Shown here in pieces: positions 27,118 through 33,837 of a stretch of DNA of 64,000 nt. The DNA comes from Methylocystis sp. KS32 (GTDB lineage Bacteria > Pseudomonadota > Alphaproteobacteria > Rhizobiales > Beijerinckiaceae). The translations under genes were made by a program, and so were the position numbers. The notes under the pieces were generated by a model. The model had not been told where the DNA came from. It did not search any database and saw only the letters and a program-made list of their open reading frames with translations. Positions within the stretch are counted from its first letter, which is position 1. Every line of letters starts with the position of its first letter. The stretch lies in contig PHSQ01000002.1 in assembly GCA_002862095.1 (NCBI GenBank), positions 496,001 through 560,000 of the forward strand. Direction: 5' to 3'.

Positions 27118-28203
27118 TCACGCAATTTTGGCGCGTTCGTACCATTTTCTCGACCGGCGGACGATATGGACCACAGAGAGCATGACCGGCACCTCGACAA
27201 GGACGCCGACGACCGTCGCGAGCGCGGCGCCGGACTGGAAGCCGAACAGCGCGATTGCCGTCGCGACGGCGAGCTCAAAGAAGTTGCTCGCGCCGATCAG
27301 CGCCGAAGGACCGGCGATGCGCCATTCTACGCCGAGGGCGCGATTGAGCAGATAGGCCAGGCTTGCATTGAAATAGACCTGAATCAGGATCGGCGCCGCC
27401 AGCAGGCCGATGACGAGCGGCTGGCGAATAATTTGTTCGCCTTGCAAGCCGAACAGGATGACGAGCGTCAGCAGCAGGGCGGAAAGCGACAGCGGGCCGA
27501 GCCTATTGAGCGTCTTCTTCAAGGCGTCCTGCCCGCCTTGCGCCAGCAGCGCGCGCCGCCAGAGTTGCGCGATTATCACCGGCACGACGATGTAAAGCAC
27601 GACCGACAGCAGCAGCGTGTTCCATGGCACGGTAATGGACGAGAGACCGAGCAGCAGGGCGACAATCGGCGCGAAGGCGACCACCATGATGCTGTCATTG
27701 AGGGCGACCTGCGACAGCGTGAAATGCGGCTCGCCATCCACGAGGTTCGACCAGACGAAGACCATGGCCGTGCAGGGCGCGGCGGCCAGCAGGATCAGGC
27801 CCGCGATATAGCTGTCGATTTGGTCGGCAGGCAGGAAGGGCCTGAAGAGGTGCGAAATAAAAACCCAGCCGAGCAGCGCCATGGAGAAGGGCTTCACCAG
27901 CCAGTTAATCCCGACCGTCACGGCGATCCCGCGCCAATGCTCCTTGACCTGCCCGAGGGCGCCGAGGTCGATCTTGAGCAGCATCGGGATGATCATGAGC
28001 CAGATCAGCACGGCGACCGGCAGATTGACCTCGGCGACCGTCGCGCCGCCGATTGCATGAAAGACGGCAGGCAGGGCTTGGCCCAGGACGACGCCTGCGA
28101 CGATGCACAGCGCCACCCAGAGCGTCAAAAACCGCTCGAAGAGGCCCATGGCGGGGGGCGTGCTGATTTCGGGCGCCTTCTGGCTGGCTGTCGCTTCACT
28201 CAT
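27118..28203 (-). CDS. acr3: Arsenite efflux transporter Acr3
   Basis: A 361-aa ten-helix membrane carrier of the Acr3 family (bile acid/arsenite permease superfamily) that exports arsenite. The conserved Cys lies in LLAAAPCTAMVFVWSNL (helix 4) and the essential Glu in IGASNFFELAVATAIALFG (helix 9). Other family marks are MIIPMLLKIDL and NWLVKPFSMALLGW. It is the third gene of arsR-arsC-acr3, 159 bp after arsC. Confidence 0.95.
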   Translation of the reverse strand: MSEATASQKAPEISTPPAMGLFERFLTLWVALCIVAGVVLGQALPAVFHAIGGATVAEVNLPVAVLIWLMIIPMLLKIDLGALGQVKEHWRGIAVTVGINWLVKPFSMALLGWVFISHLFRPFLPADQIDSYIAGLILLAAAPCTAMVFVWSNLVDGEPHFTLSQVALNDSIMVVAFAPIVALLLGLSSITVPWNTLLLSVVLYIVVPVIIAQLWRRALLAQGGQDALKKTLNRLGPLSLSALLLTLVILFGLQGEQIIRQPLVIGLLAAPILIQVYFNASLAYLLNRALGVEWRIAGPSALIGASNFFELAVATAIALFGFQSGAALATVVGVLVEVPVMLSVVHIVRRSRKWYERAKIA

Positions 28204-28362
28204 GGCCGCTACTCTTTCTCGAATGATCAGGCGGGTTCGGCGACGAGCGTCGCCAGTTCGAGCTAACGATCCACCCCAAAGGCTGCTCCTCGCCGCTTTG
28301 CAGACCCATGGCCCCCATATTGCGCGAGGCGCCGCAAGCAGCGTTATGATAGCCGACGATTG

Positions 28363-28890
28363 TCACGATCGAGATTCCGCTTTGTCGGTCGCGCCTTCCG
28401 ATTGGCCGATTTCGCGCAAGCGGTTTTTGAGCGCCATTTTGTCGAGACGGGCGATCGGCGTCGCAAGCAGCAACGAAATTCTGGTCTTCAAGTAGCGGAA
28501 CGCGAGATTGAACGCGCGGCGCTTTTCGACGTCCGAGCCTTCGACCGCCGCCGGGTCTTCGATACCCCAATGCCCCGTCATCGGCTGCCCCGGCCATACG
28601 GGGCAAACTTCTCCCGCCGCGTTGTCACAGACCGTGAACACAAAATCCAGCGTCGGCGCGTCAGGAGTCGCAAACTCCTCCCAGTTCTTCGAGCGAAAAC
28701 CATCCGTCGGATAACCGTAAGCCTCAAGAGTCTTGATAGCATAAGGGTTGACTGCGCCCTTCGGTTGGCTCCCCGCCGAAAAGACATTGAAGCGGCCAGC
28801 GCCGTCCTTGCGGAGAATGCTTTCGGCCATGATCGAGCGGGCGCTGTTGCCGGTGCATAGAAACAGGGCGTTGTATAGGCGGTCAGTCAT
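28363..28890 (-). CDS. arsC: Arsenate reductase, low-molecular-weight phosphatase type
   Basis: Reduces arsenate to arsenite for export by Acr3. The 175-aa protein starts at MTDRLYNALF; its ATG overlaps the end of arsR by 8 bp. The phosphatase P-loop is FLCTGNSARSIMAE (CX5R). FVFTVCDNAAGEVCP provides two redox cysteines of the thioredoxin-linked class, and HWGIEDPAAVEG is a family motif. The C-terminal extension after about residue 140 (NRLREIGQSEG) is common in alphaproteobacteria. Confidence 0.94.
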   Translation of the reverse strand: MTDRLYNALFLCTGNSARSIMAESILRKDGAGRFNVFSAGSQPKGAVNPYAIKTLEAYGYPTDGFRSKNWEEFATPDAPTLDFVFTVCDNAAGEVCPVWPGQPMTGHWGIEDPAAVEGSDVEKRRAFNLAFRYLKTRISLLLATPIARLDKMALKNRLREIGQSEGATDKAESRS

Positions 28891-29239
28891 CGACGTGAGC
28901 CTTTGCTTCGCAGCAGGTGGCGATGTCGGCGACGAGCGGCGCGCAAGTTTCGGCGCGCCCACCGCAGCAATCCTCGAGGAGAAAAAGCGTCAGTTCACTC
29001 AGTCGCGAAAGGTCGGCGCGGAAGATGATTGAACGGCTCCGGCGTTCGCCTTTGACTAAGCCGGCGCGCGCCAACACCGCCAAATGAGCCGACATTGTGT
29101 TTTGGGGCACGGCCAGCAGGCGTGCGATTTCTCCCGCGGGCACGCCTTCCGGCTCCCGGGTCACCAGGAGTCGGAATGTCTCCAGGCGGGTCGGTTGGGC
29201 TAGCGCGGCGAGCGCCGCGATTGCTTCATAATTTTCCAT
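28883..29239 (-). CDS. arsR: ArsR-family arsenic-responsive repressor
   Basis: A 118-aa winged-helix repressor, first gene of the ars operon. The DNA-recognition region reads AGEIARLLAVPQNTMSAHLAVL. The arsenite site is not in the DNA-binding helix as in the E. coli plasmid protein; cysteines sit at the C-terminus instead (EDCCGGRAETCAPL and TCCEAKAH), as in the alphaproteobacterial type. It overlaps arsC. Autorepression and release by As(III) are expected from the family. Confidence 0.93.
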   Translation of the reverse strand: MENYEAIAALAALAQPTRLETFRLLVTREPEGVPAGEIARLLAVPQNTMSAHLAVLARAGLVKGERRSRSIIFRADLSRLSELTLFLLEDCCGGRAETCAPLVADIATCCEAKAHVDD

Positions 29240-29431
29240 ATATCGAGATTATAGGATATCATTGACCGGCGCAAGACGCCATAAGATGTCTTACGCCGCC
29301 ATGCCGGGGTTGCTCGGCCGCGCCTTATCCTTTCGCATGGCGCCTTCGTCCTATGCAGGAGATGTCGGTCGCGGAGCCCGACGCCATTACGCAGCTATAT
29401 GTTTTTATAATATGAGCGAGAATATCGCTCT

Positions 29432-29448
29432 TGGCGCCATTCGTGCTT
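29432..29448 (+). promoter_or_regulatory. Sigma-54 type promoter upstream of the outer-membrane protein/nasTS leader
   Basis: TGGCGCC, four bases, GTGCTT: GG at -24 and GC at -12 are spaced exactly as in the sigma-54 consensus. The predicted transcript start (about 29458-29461) falls just before the first ANTAR-type hairpin. Use of this promoter fits control of nitrate assimilation by NtrC; no activator site was identified. Confidence 0.65.
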
Positions 29449-29462
29449 GATCGTTAGCCGAA

Positions 29463-29498
29463 ACGTCAGGGATGACGTCATGGGCCCAATGGCGGGCC
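29463..29498 (+). promoter_or_regulatory. ANTAR-type double hexaloop RNA motif, leader 1
   Basis: Hairpin 1 (29463-29478): stem ACGTC/GACGT, loop AGGGAT. Hairpin 2 (29483-29498): stem GGCCC/GGGCC, loop AATGGC. Both six-base loops have A at position 1 and G at position 4, the features recognised by ANTAR-domain proteins, and the linker is 4 bases. An intrinsic terminator follows 10 bases later. NasT, encoded 2.2 kb downstream, is the obvious binder. Confidence 0.85.
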
Positions 29499-29508
29499 TT
29501 GCAGCAAC

Positions 29509-29570
29509 GCCGCTGTTCCGAAAGTCGCCGCACGCAAAGCGGAGGCATTCGGACAGCGGCTTTTTCGTTT
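29509..29570 (+). terminator. Intrinsic terminator in the leader (antitermination target)
   Basis: The arm GCCGCTGTTCCGAA returns as TTCGGACAGCGGC (13 pairs with one bulged T), enclosing a 25-base apical part that can form its own small stem (CCGC/GCGG), and is followed by TTTTTCGTTTTC. It ends 47 bases before the chosen start codon of the outer-membrane protein, so it stops the operon before its first gene unless an antiterminator acts. Confidence 0.85.
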
Positions 29571-29616
29571 TCAAGCCGTGCGACACCACCTCCTCGCCGG
29601 CGCCGGAGTGAACGAC

Positions 29617-31548
29617 ATGCGACGGATCGCAGCTGAATTTTCCCCCGTCCGCTATCGGCGCAAGCGGCTCCATTGGCTACTGTCCGCGGCAATGGCGACG
29701 CCGATGGGCGTTGCGGCTGCTCATGCGGGCGATCTTTCCACGGTCGATACGCCGACGCAGCCGGCTCTCGCGCCGGTCCCGCTCGGCGTGTTCGGCGACA
29801 CGCTTCCGGGGGCCGGCAATCTCCTGCTGACGCTGTCGCCGCAATTTGTCGGAAGCGCGAACTCGCTGATCGGGACCAGAGCCGTGTCGTCGCAACAGAT
29901 CGTTGCGACCACGCCTTGGTACTGGAGTCCTTTGGTTCCGGTGCGCCTGGTTCCACAGCGACGGTTGGATGAGCTCCAATCGGCGACGCTGGGCTATGGC
30001 GTCACCAAAGACATCTCGGTGGTGCTAAATGCCGGCTGGATCGAAAAGCACGTCGATCTCATGACGTTCAATGGGACTTCGGGAATAATTCCGCGCGGGA
30101 TGAGCAATGTGGGGACCGAAAGTCTCCAAGACACGCAGCTCGCCGGAATTTGGCGGGTCTATCAGGATCCGATCCATCGTGTTCAGCTCAATCTCGGCAT
30201 GTCCTTCCCGACCGGGAGCGACCACAATCTCGCGACCAATCTCCAACCGACCGGAACCTGGTCAACGGGTCGAGCCTTCTACATCATGCAGACGGGAACC
30301 GGAACCTTCGACGTCATGCCGGGCGTGCTCTATGGCGGTGCGCTGGGACCATGGTCCTGGGGTCTTTCCTATCGCGCGCGCCTGCCGCTGGGCGTCAATC
30401 CAGAGGGATATATGTGGGGCAATTATCAGGAAGCCAACGGCTGGGCCGGCTACGCTTGGTTGCCGGGCTTCACGACCACGTTTCGCATCACCGGCAACAT
30501 TCAGGACCACATCGTCGGCGCCGATCCGTTGATCGTGGGGAGGATTCAGGCCGCCGATCCGAACCTCTATGGCGGCAAGCGCATCGAATTGTTTGGCGGC
30601 GCGTCGCTCGACGGCAAGCTCGTCGGCGTTCCGGCGGTGAGCATGTTGATCGAGGCCGGAATGCCGGTCTACCAGAATCTCAACGGCCCGCAGCTCGCAA
30701 AGGCCTGGCAAGCAACGATGGCGCTGCGCTGGAAGGTCGGCGATGCGCCGGCGCCGGTTGTGGGATCTGGCCTTCCCGCGCGGAAAAGTCCGCCGGAGGC
30801 CAGTCCATCGCGGGAAGGAAGCTGGAACGGCCTCTATCTCGGCCTCGATGCGGGCCATGCTTGGAGCGCCGATAACGCGACGACCTTCAACTATGTCGGC
30901 TCAGGCGGCGGTTTCGTCGCGCTTTCCGCGGCGGGCGTCCTGCCGTCAGGGTTCAATCTGAGCAGCAATGGCTTCATGGGCGGCGGAGAGATCGGCTATA
31001 ATTATCGCATCGACGACAGGCTGGTCGCCGCTATCGAAACCGACATCGAGGGCGTCGCGGTCGGCGTGACCCAAGCGAACCGGGTGGCCGGCTCGCCCCT
31101 CGTTTACGTCCAGGGCCAGCGCAGCCAGCACAGTTTCGGGACGGTTCGTGGTCGCGCCGGCTTCCTGGTCACGCCGACATTGATGGCTTTTGGAACAGGC
31201 GGTCTCGCTTATGGCGAAGCCGATCTGAGCGCGGCCTGGTTCAGCCCATCCCTTAAGCCCGCGCTCAATGCGGGCGGGAGCGCATTCGGCTATCAGGACA
31301 TGCGGACCGGATGGACGGCTGGAGCCGGCGTCGAGTGGATGTTCCTGCCAAAATGGAGCGCCAAGCTCGAATATATTTACTATGACCTTGGGACGGCGAC
31401 GATGCTTCCGCTGCAGGCGGTCTATGGAGTGAAAGGGCTTTTCTCAAGCGCCTCTTATCAAGGGCGCTTCAACGGCGACATTGTCCGCGTCGGCGTGAAC
31501 TATCACTTCAACTGGGGCCTCTCGGAGCCGGCGATCGTTAAAATCTGA
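29617..31548 (+). CDS. Two-barrel outer-membrane protein heading the nitrate region
   Basis: A 643-aa exported protein; GGAG lies nine bases before the ATG at 29617. A signal peptide (to about residue 38, AAHA) is followed by a first beta-barrel domain (about 45-390) of the MetA-pathway/transporter-like type (GMSFPTGSDHNLA, GTFDVMPGVLYGG). A proline/serine linker (about 395-410) leads to a second complete small barrel of the Omp25/RopB type (about 412-643: WNGLYLGLDAGHAWS, MGGGEIGYNYRID, AKLEYIYYDLG, ending VGVNYHFNW with the C-terminal aromatic pattern). Its ANTAR leader suggests a role in nitrate or nitrite uptake across the outer membrane; that role is inference. Confidence 0.8.
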   Translation: MRRIAAEFSPVRYRRKRLHWLLSAAMATPMGVAAAHAGDLSTVDTPTQPALAPVPLGVFGDTLPGAGNLLLTLSPQFVGSANSLIGTRAVSSQQIVATTPWYWSPLVPVRLVPQRRLDELQSATLGYGVTKDISVVLNAGWIEKHVDLMTFNGTSGIIPRGMSNVGTESLQDTQLAGIWRVYQDPIHRVQLNLGMSFPTGSDHNLATNLQPTGTWSTGRAFYIMQTGTGTFDVMPGVLYGGALGPWSWGLSYRARLPLGVNPEGYMWGNYQEANGWAGYAWLPGFTTTFRITGNIQDHIVGADPLIVGRIQAADPNLYGGKRIELFGGASLDGKLVGVPAVSMLIEAGMPVYQNLNGPQLAKAWQATMALRWKVGDAPAPVVGSGLPARKSPPEASPSREGSWNGLYLGLDAGHAWSADNATTFNYVGSGGGFVALSAAGVLPSGFNLSSNGFMGGGEIGYNYRIDDRLVAAIETDIEGVAVGVTQANRVAGSPLVYVQGQRSQHSFGTVRGRAGFLVTPTLMAFGTGGLAYGEADLSAAWFSPSLKPALNAGGSAFGYQDMRTGWTAGAGVEWMFLPKWSAKLEYIYYDLGTATMLPLQAVYGVKGLFSSASYQGRFNGDIVRVGVNYHFNWGLSEPAIVKI

Positions 31549-31727
31549 TCGATCCGAGAAGGAGTCGAGGCGTGCGCGCCAGCTTGGGCGTTCGCAGTTG
31601 CCTATCGCCTCCTCCAACGGCAGGATGCACGCACGCGAACTGGCGCGACAACGCGCCCTCCATCCCCGAATCACAAGACGCCGGAAGAGCGTTTTCCTCC
31701 AGTCTCCAACCGACCGGAAGCAGAAGT

Positions 31728-32300
31728 TTGAAGATCGTCATCGTCGACGAAAGCCCGATCCGCGCGGCGATCCTGGAGGAGGGATTGCGCGACGCCGGCT
31801 TTGAGGATGTTGAACGGCTCGGCGAGATGCACAACCTTCTGAAGCGCATCTACGCGATAGACCCTGACGTGATCTTGATCGACATCGAGAACCCGTCGCG
31901 AGATATTCTCGAGCAAATGTTCCAGGTCAGTCGCGCCGTACGCCGGCCCGTGGCGATGTTCGTCGACCAGAGCGACGCCGCCTCGATCGAGGCCTCCGTA
32001 GACGCCGGCGTTTCCGCCTATATCGTCGACGGGCTCAGGAAGGAGCGGATCAAATCCATCCTGGACCTCTGCATATCGCGTTTCAAAGCTTTCTCCCGAT
32101 TGCAAGACGAACTCGCGCGCGTGAAATCCGATCTCGAGGGCAGAAAGTCGATCGATCGCGCCAAGGGCATACTGATGAAGAGCAAGAACTTGACGGAAGA
32201 CCAAGCCTATGCGGCGATGCGTAGCGCCGCCATGCGAGAAAACAAGAAGATCGCGGAGATCGCACGGGCGATCGTAACCGCCGCGGAACTGCTGAAATGA
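31728..32300 (+). CDS. nasT: NasT-type ANTAR antitermination regulator
   Basis: A 190-aa RNA-binding response regulator. I start at the TTG at 31728 (GGAAG seven bases upstream) because homology begins at LKIVIVDESP; the ATG at 31572 would add 52 unrelated residues. The receiver domain (1-120) keeps the phosphorylatable-type Asp in VILIDIENPS. The C-terminal ANTAR domain (about 128-188) shows the typical DRAKGILMKSKNLTEDQAY and AAMRSAAMRENKKIAEIA helices. Its ATGA-type overlap with nasS supports coexpression with its partner. Targets are most likely the two hexaloop leaders at 29463 and 33667. Confidence 0.93.
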   Translation: MKIVIVDESPIRAAILEEGLRDAGFEDVERLGEMHNLLKRIYAIDPDVILIDIENPSRDILEQMFQVSRAVRRPVAMFVDQSDAASIEASVDAGVSAYIVDGLRKERIKSILDLCISRFKAFSRLQDELARVKSDLEGRKSIDRAKGILMKSKNLTEDQAYAAMRSAAMRENKKIAEIARAIVTAAELLK

Positions 32301-33457: not shown

Positions 33458-33639
33458 AAACGCAAAATATTTACGCGATACGCTCGCAAATGATGATCTT
33501 ATTGCCCGAAAGGACGGCGCCGTGCTTGCGCTCGGAAAGCGTCGAACTTCCTCAATCACTCTTCGCATAACTCCCAACACTTCAGGTTTTACGCGCGATC
33601 CGAACATCATCCCTCATATTCGCGCACTCCCGCGTCACA

Positions 33640-33656
33640 TGGCGCGCCTTTTGCTT
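33640..33656 (+). promoter_or_regulatory. Sigma-54 type promoter upstream of nirB
   Basis: TGGCGCG, four bases, TTGCTT, a near-consensus -24/-12 element with correct spacing. The expected transcript start (about 33665-33668) coincides with the first hexaloop hairpin at 33667, the same arrangement as in the leader at 29432. Confidence 0.75.
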
Positions 33657-33666
33657 CCTTGTTACC

Positions 33667-33759
33667 GGTCAACGGCGACCTCCGGTTCCCGGAAGGAGTC
33701 CAGTGTCGGACTTCTTATTCGCGGGCAGCGCGCATAACCCTCACGGTGAGGAAATGCGC
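33667..33759 (+). promoter_or_regulatory. ANTAR-type double hexaloop RNA leader of nirB, leader 2
   Basis: Hairpin 1 (33667-33680): GGTC/GACC, loop AACGGC. Hairpin 2 (33697-33712): AGTCC/GGACT, loop AGTGTC. Both loops have A1 and G4. A further hairpin follows at 33730-33759 (GCGCAT/ATGCGC outside CCTCA/TGAGG). It has no clear T run, so whether it acts as terminator is open. The rest of 33458-33837 shows no gene. Confidence 0.8.
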
Positions 33760-33837
33760 CAACGCGGTCGTCTGGCCATTCTCCGAAGATGAGCCGACGT
33801 CAATCGCGCCGTGAACGGAACCTTCGAGGTTGCGTAT

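What the first reader, a model, noticed from the sequence alone, without database searches (positions are those of the whole stretch)
29432..29570. ANTAR-type antitermination leader in front of an outer-membrane protein and nasTS
The sequence shows in a row: a sigma-54 type -24/-12 promoter, two hairpins with six-base loops AGGGAT and AATGGC (A1 and G4 in both), and a strong 13-bp intrinsic terminator with T run ending before the first gene. ANTAR proteins are known to bind exactly such paired hexaloop hairpins and prevent termination. NasT and NasS are encoded downstream in the same direction, so the leader implies nitrate-dependent control of a porin-like protein and probable autoregulation of the regulators. 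I know of no described NasT target that begins with such a fused outer-membrane protein.
Basis: partly seen in the sequence, partly recalled or inferred. Interest (0 to 1): 0.9.

Follow-up and report, generated by a model that had tools for sequence, protein, structure and literature searches.

The report
Nitrate RNA switch before its regulators
In Methylocystis methane-eating bacteria, a conserved RNA leader that likely acts as a nitrate-controlled on/off switch sits in front of an outer-membrane barrel gene and the genes for the nitrate regulators NasT and NasS, so the regulator would likely control its own production together with a predicted surface channel.

Summary
Window 29431-29565 holds a sigma-54-type promoter site, three hairpins and an intrinsic terminator. 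P2's 3' arm and half its loop are the terminator's 5' arm, so the two exclude each other, as in EutV leaders. Leader, OMP and nasT share a contig in 28 of 31 nasT-bearing genus genomes. NasT is the only ANTAR protein found in this 92.8%-complete genome and keeps the EutV residues reported to hold G4. Outside Methylocystis, exact P2 words followed by a T run lie downstream of nasS. A second, different leader without a T-run terminator precedes nirB (33639-33772). Verdict: new variant of a known kind, NasT antitermination extended to its own operon, headed by an outer-membrane barrel. NasT binding and nitrate control are inferred, not shown.

The parts
29431..29448 (+). sigma-54-type promoter site, GG-N10-GC
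   Evidence: sequence; same spacing in 27 of 27 upstream leader copies. Activity not shown
29463..29478 (+). hairpin 1 (upstream stem; A1/G4 of the loop not conserved)
   Evidence: 92.1% of cells paired, 1 of 5 pairs changed on both sides; A1/G4 in 2 of 26
29483..29498 (+). P1, first ANTAR hexaloop hairpin, loop AATGGC
   Evidence: A1 and G4 in 26 of 26 with 13 different loops; 97.5% of cells paired, 2 of 5 pairs changed on both sides
29501..29516 (+). P2, second ANTAR hexaloop hairpin, loop AACGCC; overlaps the terminator
   Evidence: upper four pairs invariant in 26 of 26, lowest pair absent in 20 of 26; A1/G4 forced by the collecting word
29509..29565 (+). intrinsic terminator, arms 29509-29522 and 29548-29560, then TTTTT
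   Evidence: 95.3% of cells paired, 6 of 13 pairs changed on both sides
29614..31548 (+). outer-membrane protein of two fused barrels, first gene of the operon
   Evidence: C half matches PF13505; AlphaFold2 model mean pLDDT 80.6; first barrel resembles 4rl8
31719..32300 (+). nasT, receiver plus ANTAR domain
   Evidence: PF03861 and PF00072; only ANTAR match in the genome
32297..33457 (+). nasS, nitrate-sensor-like (NMT1_2 family)
   Evidence: PF13379
33639..33772 (+). second leader, before nirB: promoter-like site 33639-33656, hexaloop hairpins 33667-33680 and 33697-33712, possible long-range partner 33766-33772; no TTTT between 33667 and nirB

Best explanation
This is a leader in which two A1/G4 hexaloop hairpins precede and overlap an intrinsic terminator, which NasT likely binds when nitrate frees it from NasS, and it would let RNA polymerase read through into an outer-membrane barrel gene and into nasT and nasS themselves. 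Shown from sequence: promoter-like site, P1, P2, a terminator that excludes P2, conservation with compensatory changes, and the OMP-nasT-nasS order. Predicted by folding: P2 forms before the terminator's 3' arm is made; then the terminator wins by about 4 kcal/mol, so without help transcription would stop near 29565. Inferred from known NasT, EutV and NasR systems: NasS holds NasT in the absence of nitrate; free NasT binds P1 and P2, stabilises P2 and so blocks the terminator. Inferred: sigma-54 with a nitrogen-limitation activator starts the transcript, so the gate needs nitrogen hunger and nitrate together; reading through nasTS raises NasT (positive feedback) and its inhibitor NasS (damping). 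The barrel may admit nitrate or another nitrogen solute; its substrate is a guess.
For: P2's 3' arm and loop GCC form the terminator's 5' arm, the arrangement described for ANTAR leaders in PMC3369931 and PMC8934654 (passages). P1 A1/G4 in 26 of 26; covarying P1 and terminator stems. Partial-chain folds: P1 and P2 both present in 4 of the 5 ends from 29518 to 29556 (29530 lacks P1); terminator from 29562; -55.5 with terminator, -51.2 with P2 forced. NasT is the one ANTAR protein found, aligns with EutV over residues 5-187 (E 1e-17) and keeps R142, K149, E160 and Y164, reported to contact G4 (numbering matched by me). Paracoccus NasT binds its nasA leader and nitrate frees it from NasS (PMC3795266, passages). 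OMP paralogues away from nasT keep the leader (L152, L153).
Against: No binding or transcript data. The P1-P2 linker is 2 nt; in eut leaders it is 5-12 nt and a 3-nt linker cut induction (PMC3369931). Single-fold energies favour the terminator and give P2 a probability near 0 in the full leader, as expected of a switch but no proof. The number of further pair types was not above shuffles (495 and 395 of 500), nor the number of pairs changed on both sides (177 of 500). No NtrC-type palindrome (up to 2 mismatches) was found near the promoter. The OMP-nasT gap is 176 nt here and 82 to 412 nt in 30 loci where an upstream frame was measured, one of which (L078) has no OMP, so a separate nasT promoter is possible. 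In Bradyrhizobium most NasT-dependent genes lack such hairpins and an outer-membrane gene rises in the nasT mutant (PMC6759348, passages). G026 and G037 hold intact nasT copies with no OMP or P2 word upstream.
Confidence: 0.82

Rival explanations
1. The leader gates only the outer-membrane gene; nasT and nasS are mainly transcribed from a weak promoter of their own, so there is little real autoregulation.
For: 176 nt between OMP and nasT here and about 290-410 nt in several genus loci; in Paracoccus nasTS is expressed apart from nasABGHC, at low level on all nitrogen sources (PMC5424462, passages). Some regulator must be made before the gate opens.
Against: The gap is about 90 nt in the commonest arrangement; the consensus scan found no terminator-like site on the plus strand between OMP and nasT; OMP, nasT and nasS stay together in the genus.
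Confidence: 0.3
2. Hairpin 1 is a third NasT site in this species (loop AGGGAT has A1 and G4), so the leader is a triple-hexaloop switch.
For: A1/G4 in the window and in L063 (AGAGAT); the stem itself is conserved with a compensatory change in 7 rows.
Against: A1/G4 in 2 of 26, as chance gives; the fold closes the loop with an A-U pair, leaving four bases.
Confidence: 0.1
3. Ordinary attenuator or chance hairpins with no link to NasT.
For: Hexaloop stems are short and terminators are common; no Rfam family matches.
Against: 2 hits in 60 shuffles against 1 in the window, at a nas operon; A1/G4 fixed in P1 while the other loop letters change; the same module recurs before nrt-type genes in relatives.
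Confidence: 0.04

Closest known systems
NasT target leaders: nasA of Paracoccus denitrificans; nosR, nirA and narK of Bradyrhizobium
   Same: NasS-NasT pair encoded nearby; leader hairpins; NasT as antiterminator (PMC3795266, PMC5424462, PMC6759348; passages)
   Different: There the leaders described precede reductase, transport or denitrification genes, and in Paracoccus nasTS is a separate unit; here the leader precedes an outer-membrane gene and nasTS
EutV dual-hexaloop leaders (Enterococcus eut operon)
   Same: Two hexaloops with A1 and G4, the second overlapping the terminator (PMC3369931, PMC8934654; passages)
   Different: Linker 2 nt instead of 5-12; nitrate and NasS instead of ethanolamine and EutW
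NasR-nasF leader of Klebsiella
   Same: ANTAR protein, nitrate, terminator in the leader (PMC3369931, passages); NasT aligns with the ANTAR domain of NasR (4akk)
   Different: NasR carries its own nitrate domain; the target operon there is nasFEDCBA
COG4313 outer-membrane channel Pput2725 (4rl8)
   Same: Barrel fold of the first domain, TM 0.74 by target length
   Different: About 10% identity; fused here to a second, OmpA-like barrel; Pput2725 is of unknown function (PMC4493636, passages)

Membership tests
ANTAR dual-hexaloop antitermination leader | Two nearby hairpins with six-base loops, A at 1 and G at 4 | tested here: met
   P1 AATGGC and P2 AACGCC; P1 kept in 26 of 26, P2 in 26 of 26 but forced by the collecting word
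ANTAR dual-hexaloop antitermination leader | Second hairpin overlaps an intrinsic terminator | tested here: met
   29509-29516 belongs to both
ANTAR dual-hexaloop antitermination leader | Linker of the right length between the hairpins | tested here: inconclusive
   2 nt here; 5-12 in eut; short also where the motif occurs in other Rhizobiales
ANTAR dual-hexaloop antitermination leader | An ANTAR protein in the genome with the residues that hold G4 | tested here: met
   one ANTAR protein; R142, K149, E160, Y164 kept
NasS-NasT regulon | NasT binds the leader and nitrate controls it | not testable with these tools
   needs binding and transcription assays
NasS-NasT regulon | nasT and nasS present, beside nitrate-assimilation genes | tested here: met
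   nasT, nasS, nirB, nasA-like, narK-like on one strand
COG4313 channel (first barrel of the OMP) | 12-strand barrel and a family sequence match | tested here: inconclusive
   model with about 12 long strands and 4rl8 as best fold, but no Pfam match for the N half or for 3 single-barrel homologues

The most novel reading that the evidence does not exclude
Methylocystis has put its nitrate regulators behind their own antitermination gate: NasT switches on an outer-membrane channel and itself through a P1-P2-terminator leader, while the reductase operon nirB-nasA-narK carries a second leader that NasT works without an intrinsic terminator. One ANTAR protein thus drives two different RNA mechanisms within 5 kb, a self-priming nitrate circuit.
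Probability: 0.4. Interest if true: 0.66.

Novelty: new variant of a known kind. Interest (0 to 1): 0.5.

Why it matters
The NasT systems in the papers I saw switch on reductase, transport or denitrification genes, with nasTS a separate unit in Paracoccus. Here the same RNA module stands ahead of the regulators and of an outer-membrane barrel, across a genus of methane oxidisers. It makes three things directly testable: whether NasT antitermination is autogenous; whether nitrate induces an outer-membrane channel; and whether the terminator-less leader before nirB shows a second way for an ANTAR protein to act.

Tried and rejected
Rfam at gathering threshold on the window gave 3 tRNAs only, and nothing at E <= 10 on 29300-29700. 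A first tandem scan without the overlap rule picked several alternative pairs. A search for an NtrC-like palindrome gave 11 matches in the window against 24.6 expected, none near the promoter. Weaker R1 matches in the own genome (E 0.6 and worse) were treated as chance. R1 matches in L168 and L170 (E 4e-4 and 3e-3) were not counted as leaders: by eye they lack the two hexaloops; a further weak match, G084:C281 (E 0.005), was not followed. For the nirB leader, the long-range pairing GACGACC/GGTCGTC is 98.7% paired but hardly varies, so it proves nothing, and a second long-range helix reached only 56.1% on this alignment. The hit names Ail, FadL and others were not used. Literature: 6 searches; no listed paper, by title or abstract start or by the passages I opened, puts a NasT leader before an outer-membrane gene or before nasTS, or treats NasT in Methylocystis. 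Only an open-licence library was searched, no supplements were seen, and the Azotobacter and Klebsiella originals were not read, so this is no proof of absence.

Rows left out of counts: the two identical copies L079 and L084; G001, G014 and G033, whose nasT loci show no P2 word (contigs start 272, 1246 and 1423 bases before nasT), stay in the 31 as misses. Two of the 28 (G026, G037) have the leader and OMP beside a nasT copy with an in-frame stop, and an intact nasT elsewhere; in G035 the OMP is split.

Full report
What is there. The window lies in a 3.36 Mb genome, G000:C7:496001-560000, estimated 92.8% complete. On the minus strand before the leader are an ArsR-like regulator (HTH_20; HTH_5 just under its cut-off), an LMWPc-family protein and an SBF-family transporter. 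On the plus strand follow the leader, an outer-membrane protein, nasT, nasS, nirB, a nasA-like molybdopterin reductase and a NarK-like transporter (nirB is over its NCBIfam cut-off, the last two are not). The genus is Methylocystis: named loci L173, L174, L177 and protein records of M. bryophila, M. heyeri and others match contigs of the unnamed genus genomes by length, which is my inference.

Three hairpins, not two. Coordinates: promoter-like site 29431-29448; hairpin 1 29463-29478; P1 29483-29498; P2 29501-29516; terminator arms 29509-29522 and 29548-29560, then TTTTT. P2's loop letters GCC and its 3' arm begin the terminator's 5' arm. Ramesh et al. (PMC3369931; passages) and Walshe et al. 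(PMC8934654; passages) describe this arrangement for ANTAR switches: P1 folds freely while P2 and the terminator exclude each other.

Folding. In folds of partial chains, P1 and P2 are both present at ends 29518, 29545, 29550 and 29556; at 29530 the best fold has P2 without P1; from 29562 the terminator replaces P2. The whole leader is -55.5 kcal/mol with the terminator and -51.2 with P2 forced. The terminator is the default, and a modest binding energy could hold P2.

Conservation. Leaders were collected by the P2 word CAGCANNGCCGCTG, giving 26 distinct upstream leaders. P1 loops have A1 and G4 in 26 of 26, with 13 different sequences; P2 loops also, but there the word forces it; hairpin 1 loops in 2 of 26. 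P1: 97.5% of cells paired, two pairs changed on both sides. Hairpin 1: 92.1%, one pair. P2: 84.6%, because its lowest pair is absent in 20 of 26; the upper four never vary. Terminator: 95.3%, 6 of 13 pairs changed on both sides. In both tests 0 of 500 shuffles reached the paired percentage or the covariation score; the number of further pair types was not unusual (495 and 395 of 500), and nor was the number of pairs changed on both sides (177 of 500; 1 of 500). Relatedness inflates such scores. GG-N10-GC spacing was present in 27 of 27 upstream copies and in 39 of 43 copies at any position.

Distribution. nasT was found in 52 of 101 genomes, 31 of them in the genus, own genome included. The leader precedes an OMP-nasT pair on one contig in 28 of these 31. 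In two of the 28 (G026, G037) that nasT copy has an in-frame stop and an intact nasT stands elsewhere without OMP or P2 word upstream; in G035 the OMP is split. The three misses are G001, G014 and G033; G014 and G033 have R1 matches near the ends of other contigs. Of 21 unnamed nasT loci outside the genus (L093-L114 without L097), 0 show the OMP; 6 hold the exact P2 word, all downstream of nasT. Of the other 76, 12 hold the exact P2 word followed by a T run, all at +1932 to +2592 from nasT, in Methylosinus, Afipia, Rhodopseudomonas, Pseudolabrys and unclassified Rhizobiales. A looser scan of my own found the motif upstream in 3 of 80 named loci (all Methylocystis), 0 of 21 outside loci and 22 of 32 genus loci, and downstream only in 2 of 80 and 6 of 21; it is insensitive, so absence elsewhere is not firm.

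Other sites in the genus. Model R1 matched in 35 of 61 genomes. I looked at 15 further places: an NMT1_2-family substrate-binding gene with permease and ATPase frames (L154, L155, L156; family checked for L156 only); OMP homologues away from nasT (L152; L153, with a short OMP frame and an IstB-family frame after it); an OMP with leader beside nasS in pieces (L154); and an isolated copy 0.4-1.5 kb ahead of a 573-aa frame (4 loci; MFS_1 in L157) or a 477-aa frame (3 loci; saccharopine-dehydrogenase family in L162). L168 and L170 were dropped. An OMP that keeps the leader away from the regulators argues that the OMP itself is a target. In the own genome R1 finds only this leader with confidence: E 2.5e-25, next 0.6.

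The protein partner. NasT is the only ANTAR protein found in the genome. It aligns with EutV over residues 5-187 (E 1e-17) and with the ANTAR domain of NasR. Matching that alignment by eye to the contacts reported in PMC8934654 (passages; the chain is numbered two ahead of the paper), R142, K143, K149, E160, Y164, R168 and M172 are kept; K147 is R, N173 is R, R175 is N and R177 is K. Paracoccus NasT binds its nasA leader and is freed by nitrate (PMC3795266; passages). That this NasT binds this RNA is inferred.

The outer-membrane protein. Pfam sees a barrel only in the C half. AlphaFold2, with 52 of the 120 listed homologues, mean pLDDT 80.6, pTM 0.65, gives a barrel of about 12 long strands (69-374), a loose linker and a barrel of about 8 long strands (405-630). 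The best solved folds are the COG4313 channel 4rl8 and FapF. Directly before nasT the fused form is seen in the window, L062 and L063; other genus loci have the first barrel alone, and L092 has a fused copy 2.7 kb before one nasT. Pput2725, the COG4313 channel, was mostly non-conducting below 150 mV and allowed uptake of small polar molecules (PMC4493636; passages), so a nitrate-porin role is a guess.

The second leader. Between nasS and nirB lies another promoter-like site (33639-33656), then GGTC-AACGGC-GACC, a CCGG hairpin and AGTCC-AGTGTC-GGACT, with no TTTT from 33667 to the nirB frame. In 22 loci collected by the first hairpin's word, the second loop keeps G4 in 22 and A1 in 19; its stem has two pairs changed on both sides, the first stem never varies. 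A downstream GGTCGTC could pair with the first hairpin (98.7% of cells) but hardly varies. Ramesh et al. noted ANTAR motifs without terminators that may act otherwise, such as on translation. The word occurs in 1 of the 77 named loci L175-L251, a Methylocystis. In 8 genus loci (L078, L082, L086, L088, L089, L091, L092, L097) and the duplicate L079 the place downstream of nasS is held by the P2 word instead. That NasT works this leader is inferred.

Verdict. It works like a NasT antitermination switch and meets the features of that family that sequence can test, except that its short linker departs from the eut figures. What is new is the place: ahead of an outer-membrane barrel and of its own regulators, kept across a genus. 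In 6 searches of an open-licence library I saw no report of this.

Noticed in passing
33639-33772: A second leader before nirB with its own promoter-like site, two hexaloop hairpins and no T-run terminator; conserved in 22 genus loci.
   Followed up: partly
L157-L163: An isolated copy of the P1-P2-terminator element 0.4-1.5 kb ahead of an MFS_1 or a saccharopine-dehydrogenase-family gene, perhaps a small NasT-binding RNA; not found in the window's genome.
   Followed up: partly
L154: A second OMP locus keeps the leader while the adjoining nasS is in pieces.
   Followed up: no
L155 (genome G011): A strong leader match (E 3e-15) in a genome of 97% completeness where no nasT was found.
   Followed up: no
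P0065, P0067 and other single-barrel homologues: Public records name them alpha-amylase, though 3 of them have no Pfam match and the related window protein models as a barrel; likely a misannotation.
   Followed up: partly
27118-29239, minus strand: Divergent arsenic-type cluster: ArsR-like regulator, LMWPc-family and SBF-family proteins.
   Followed up: no
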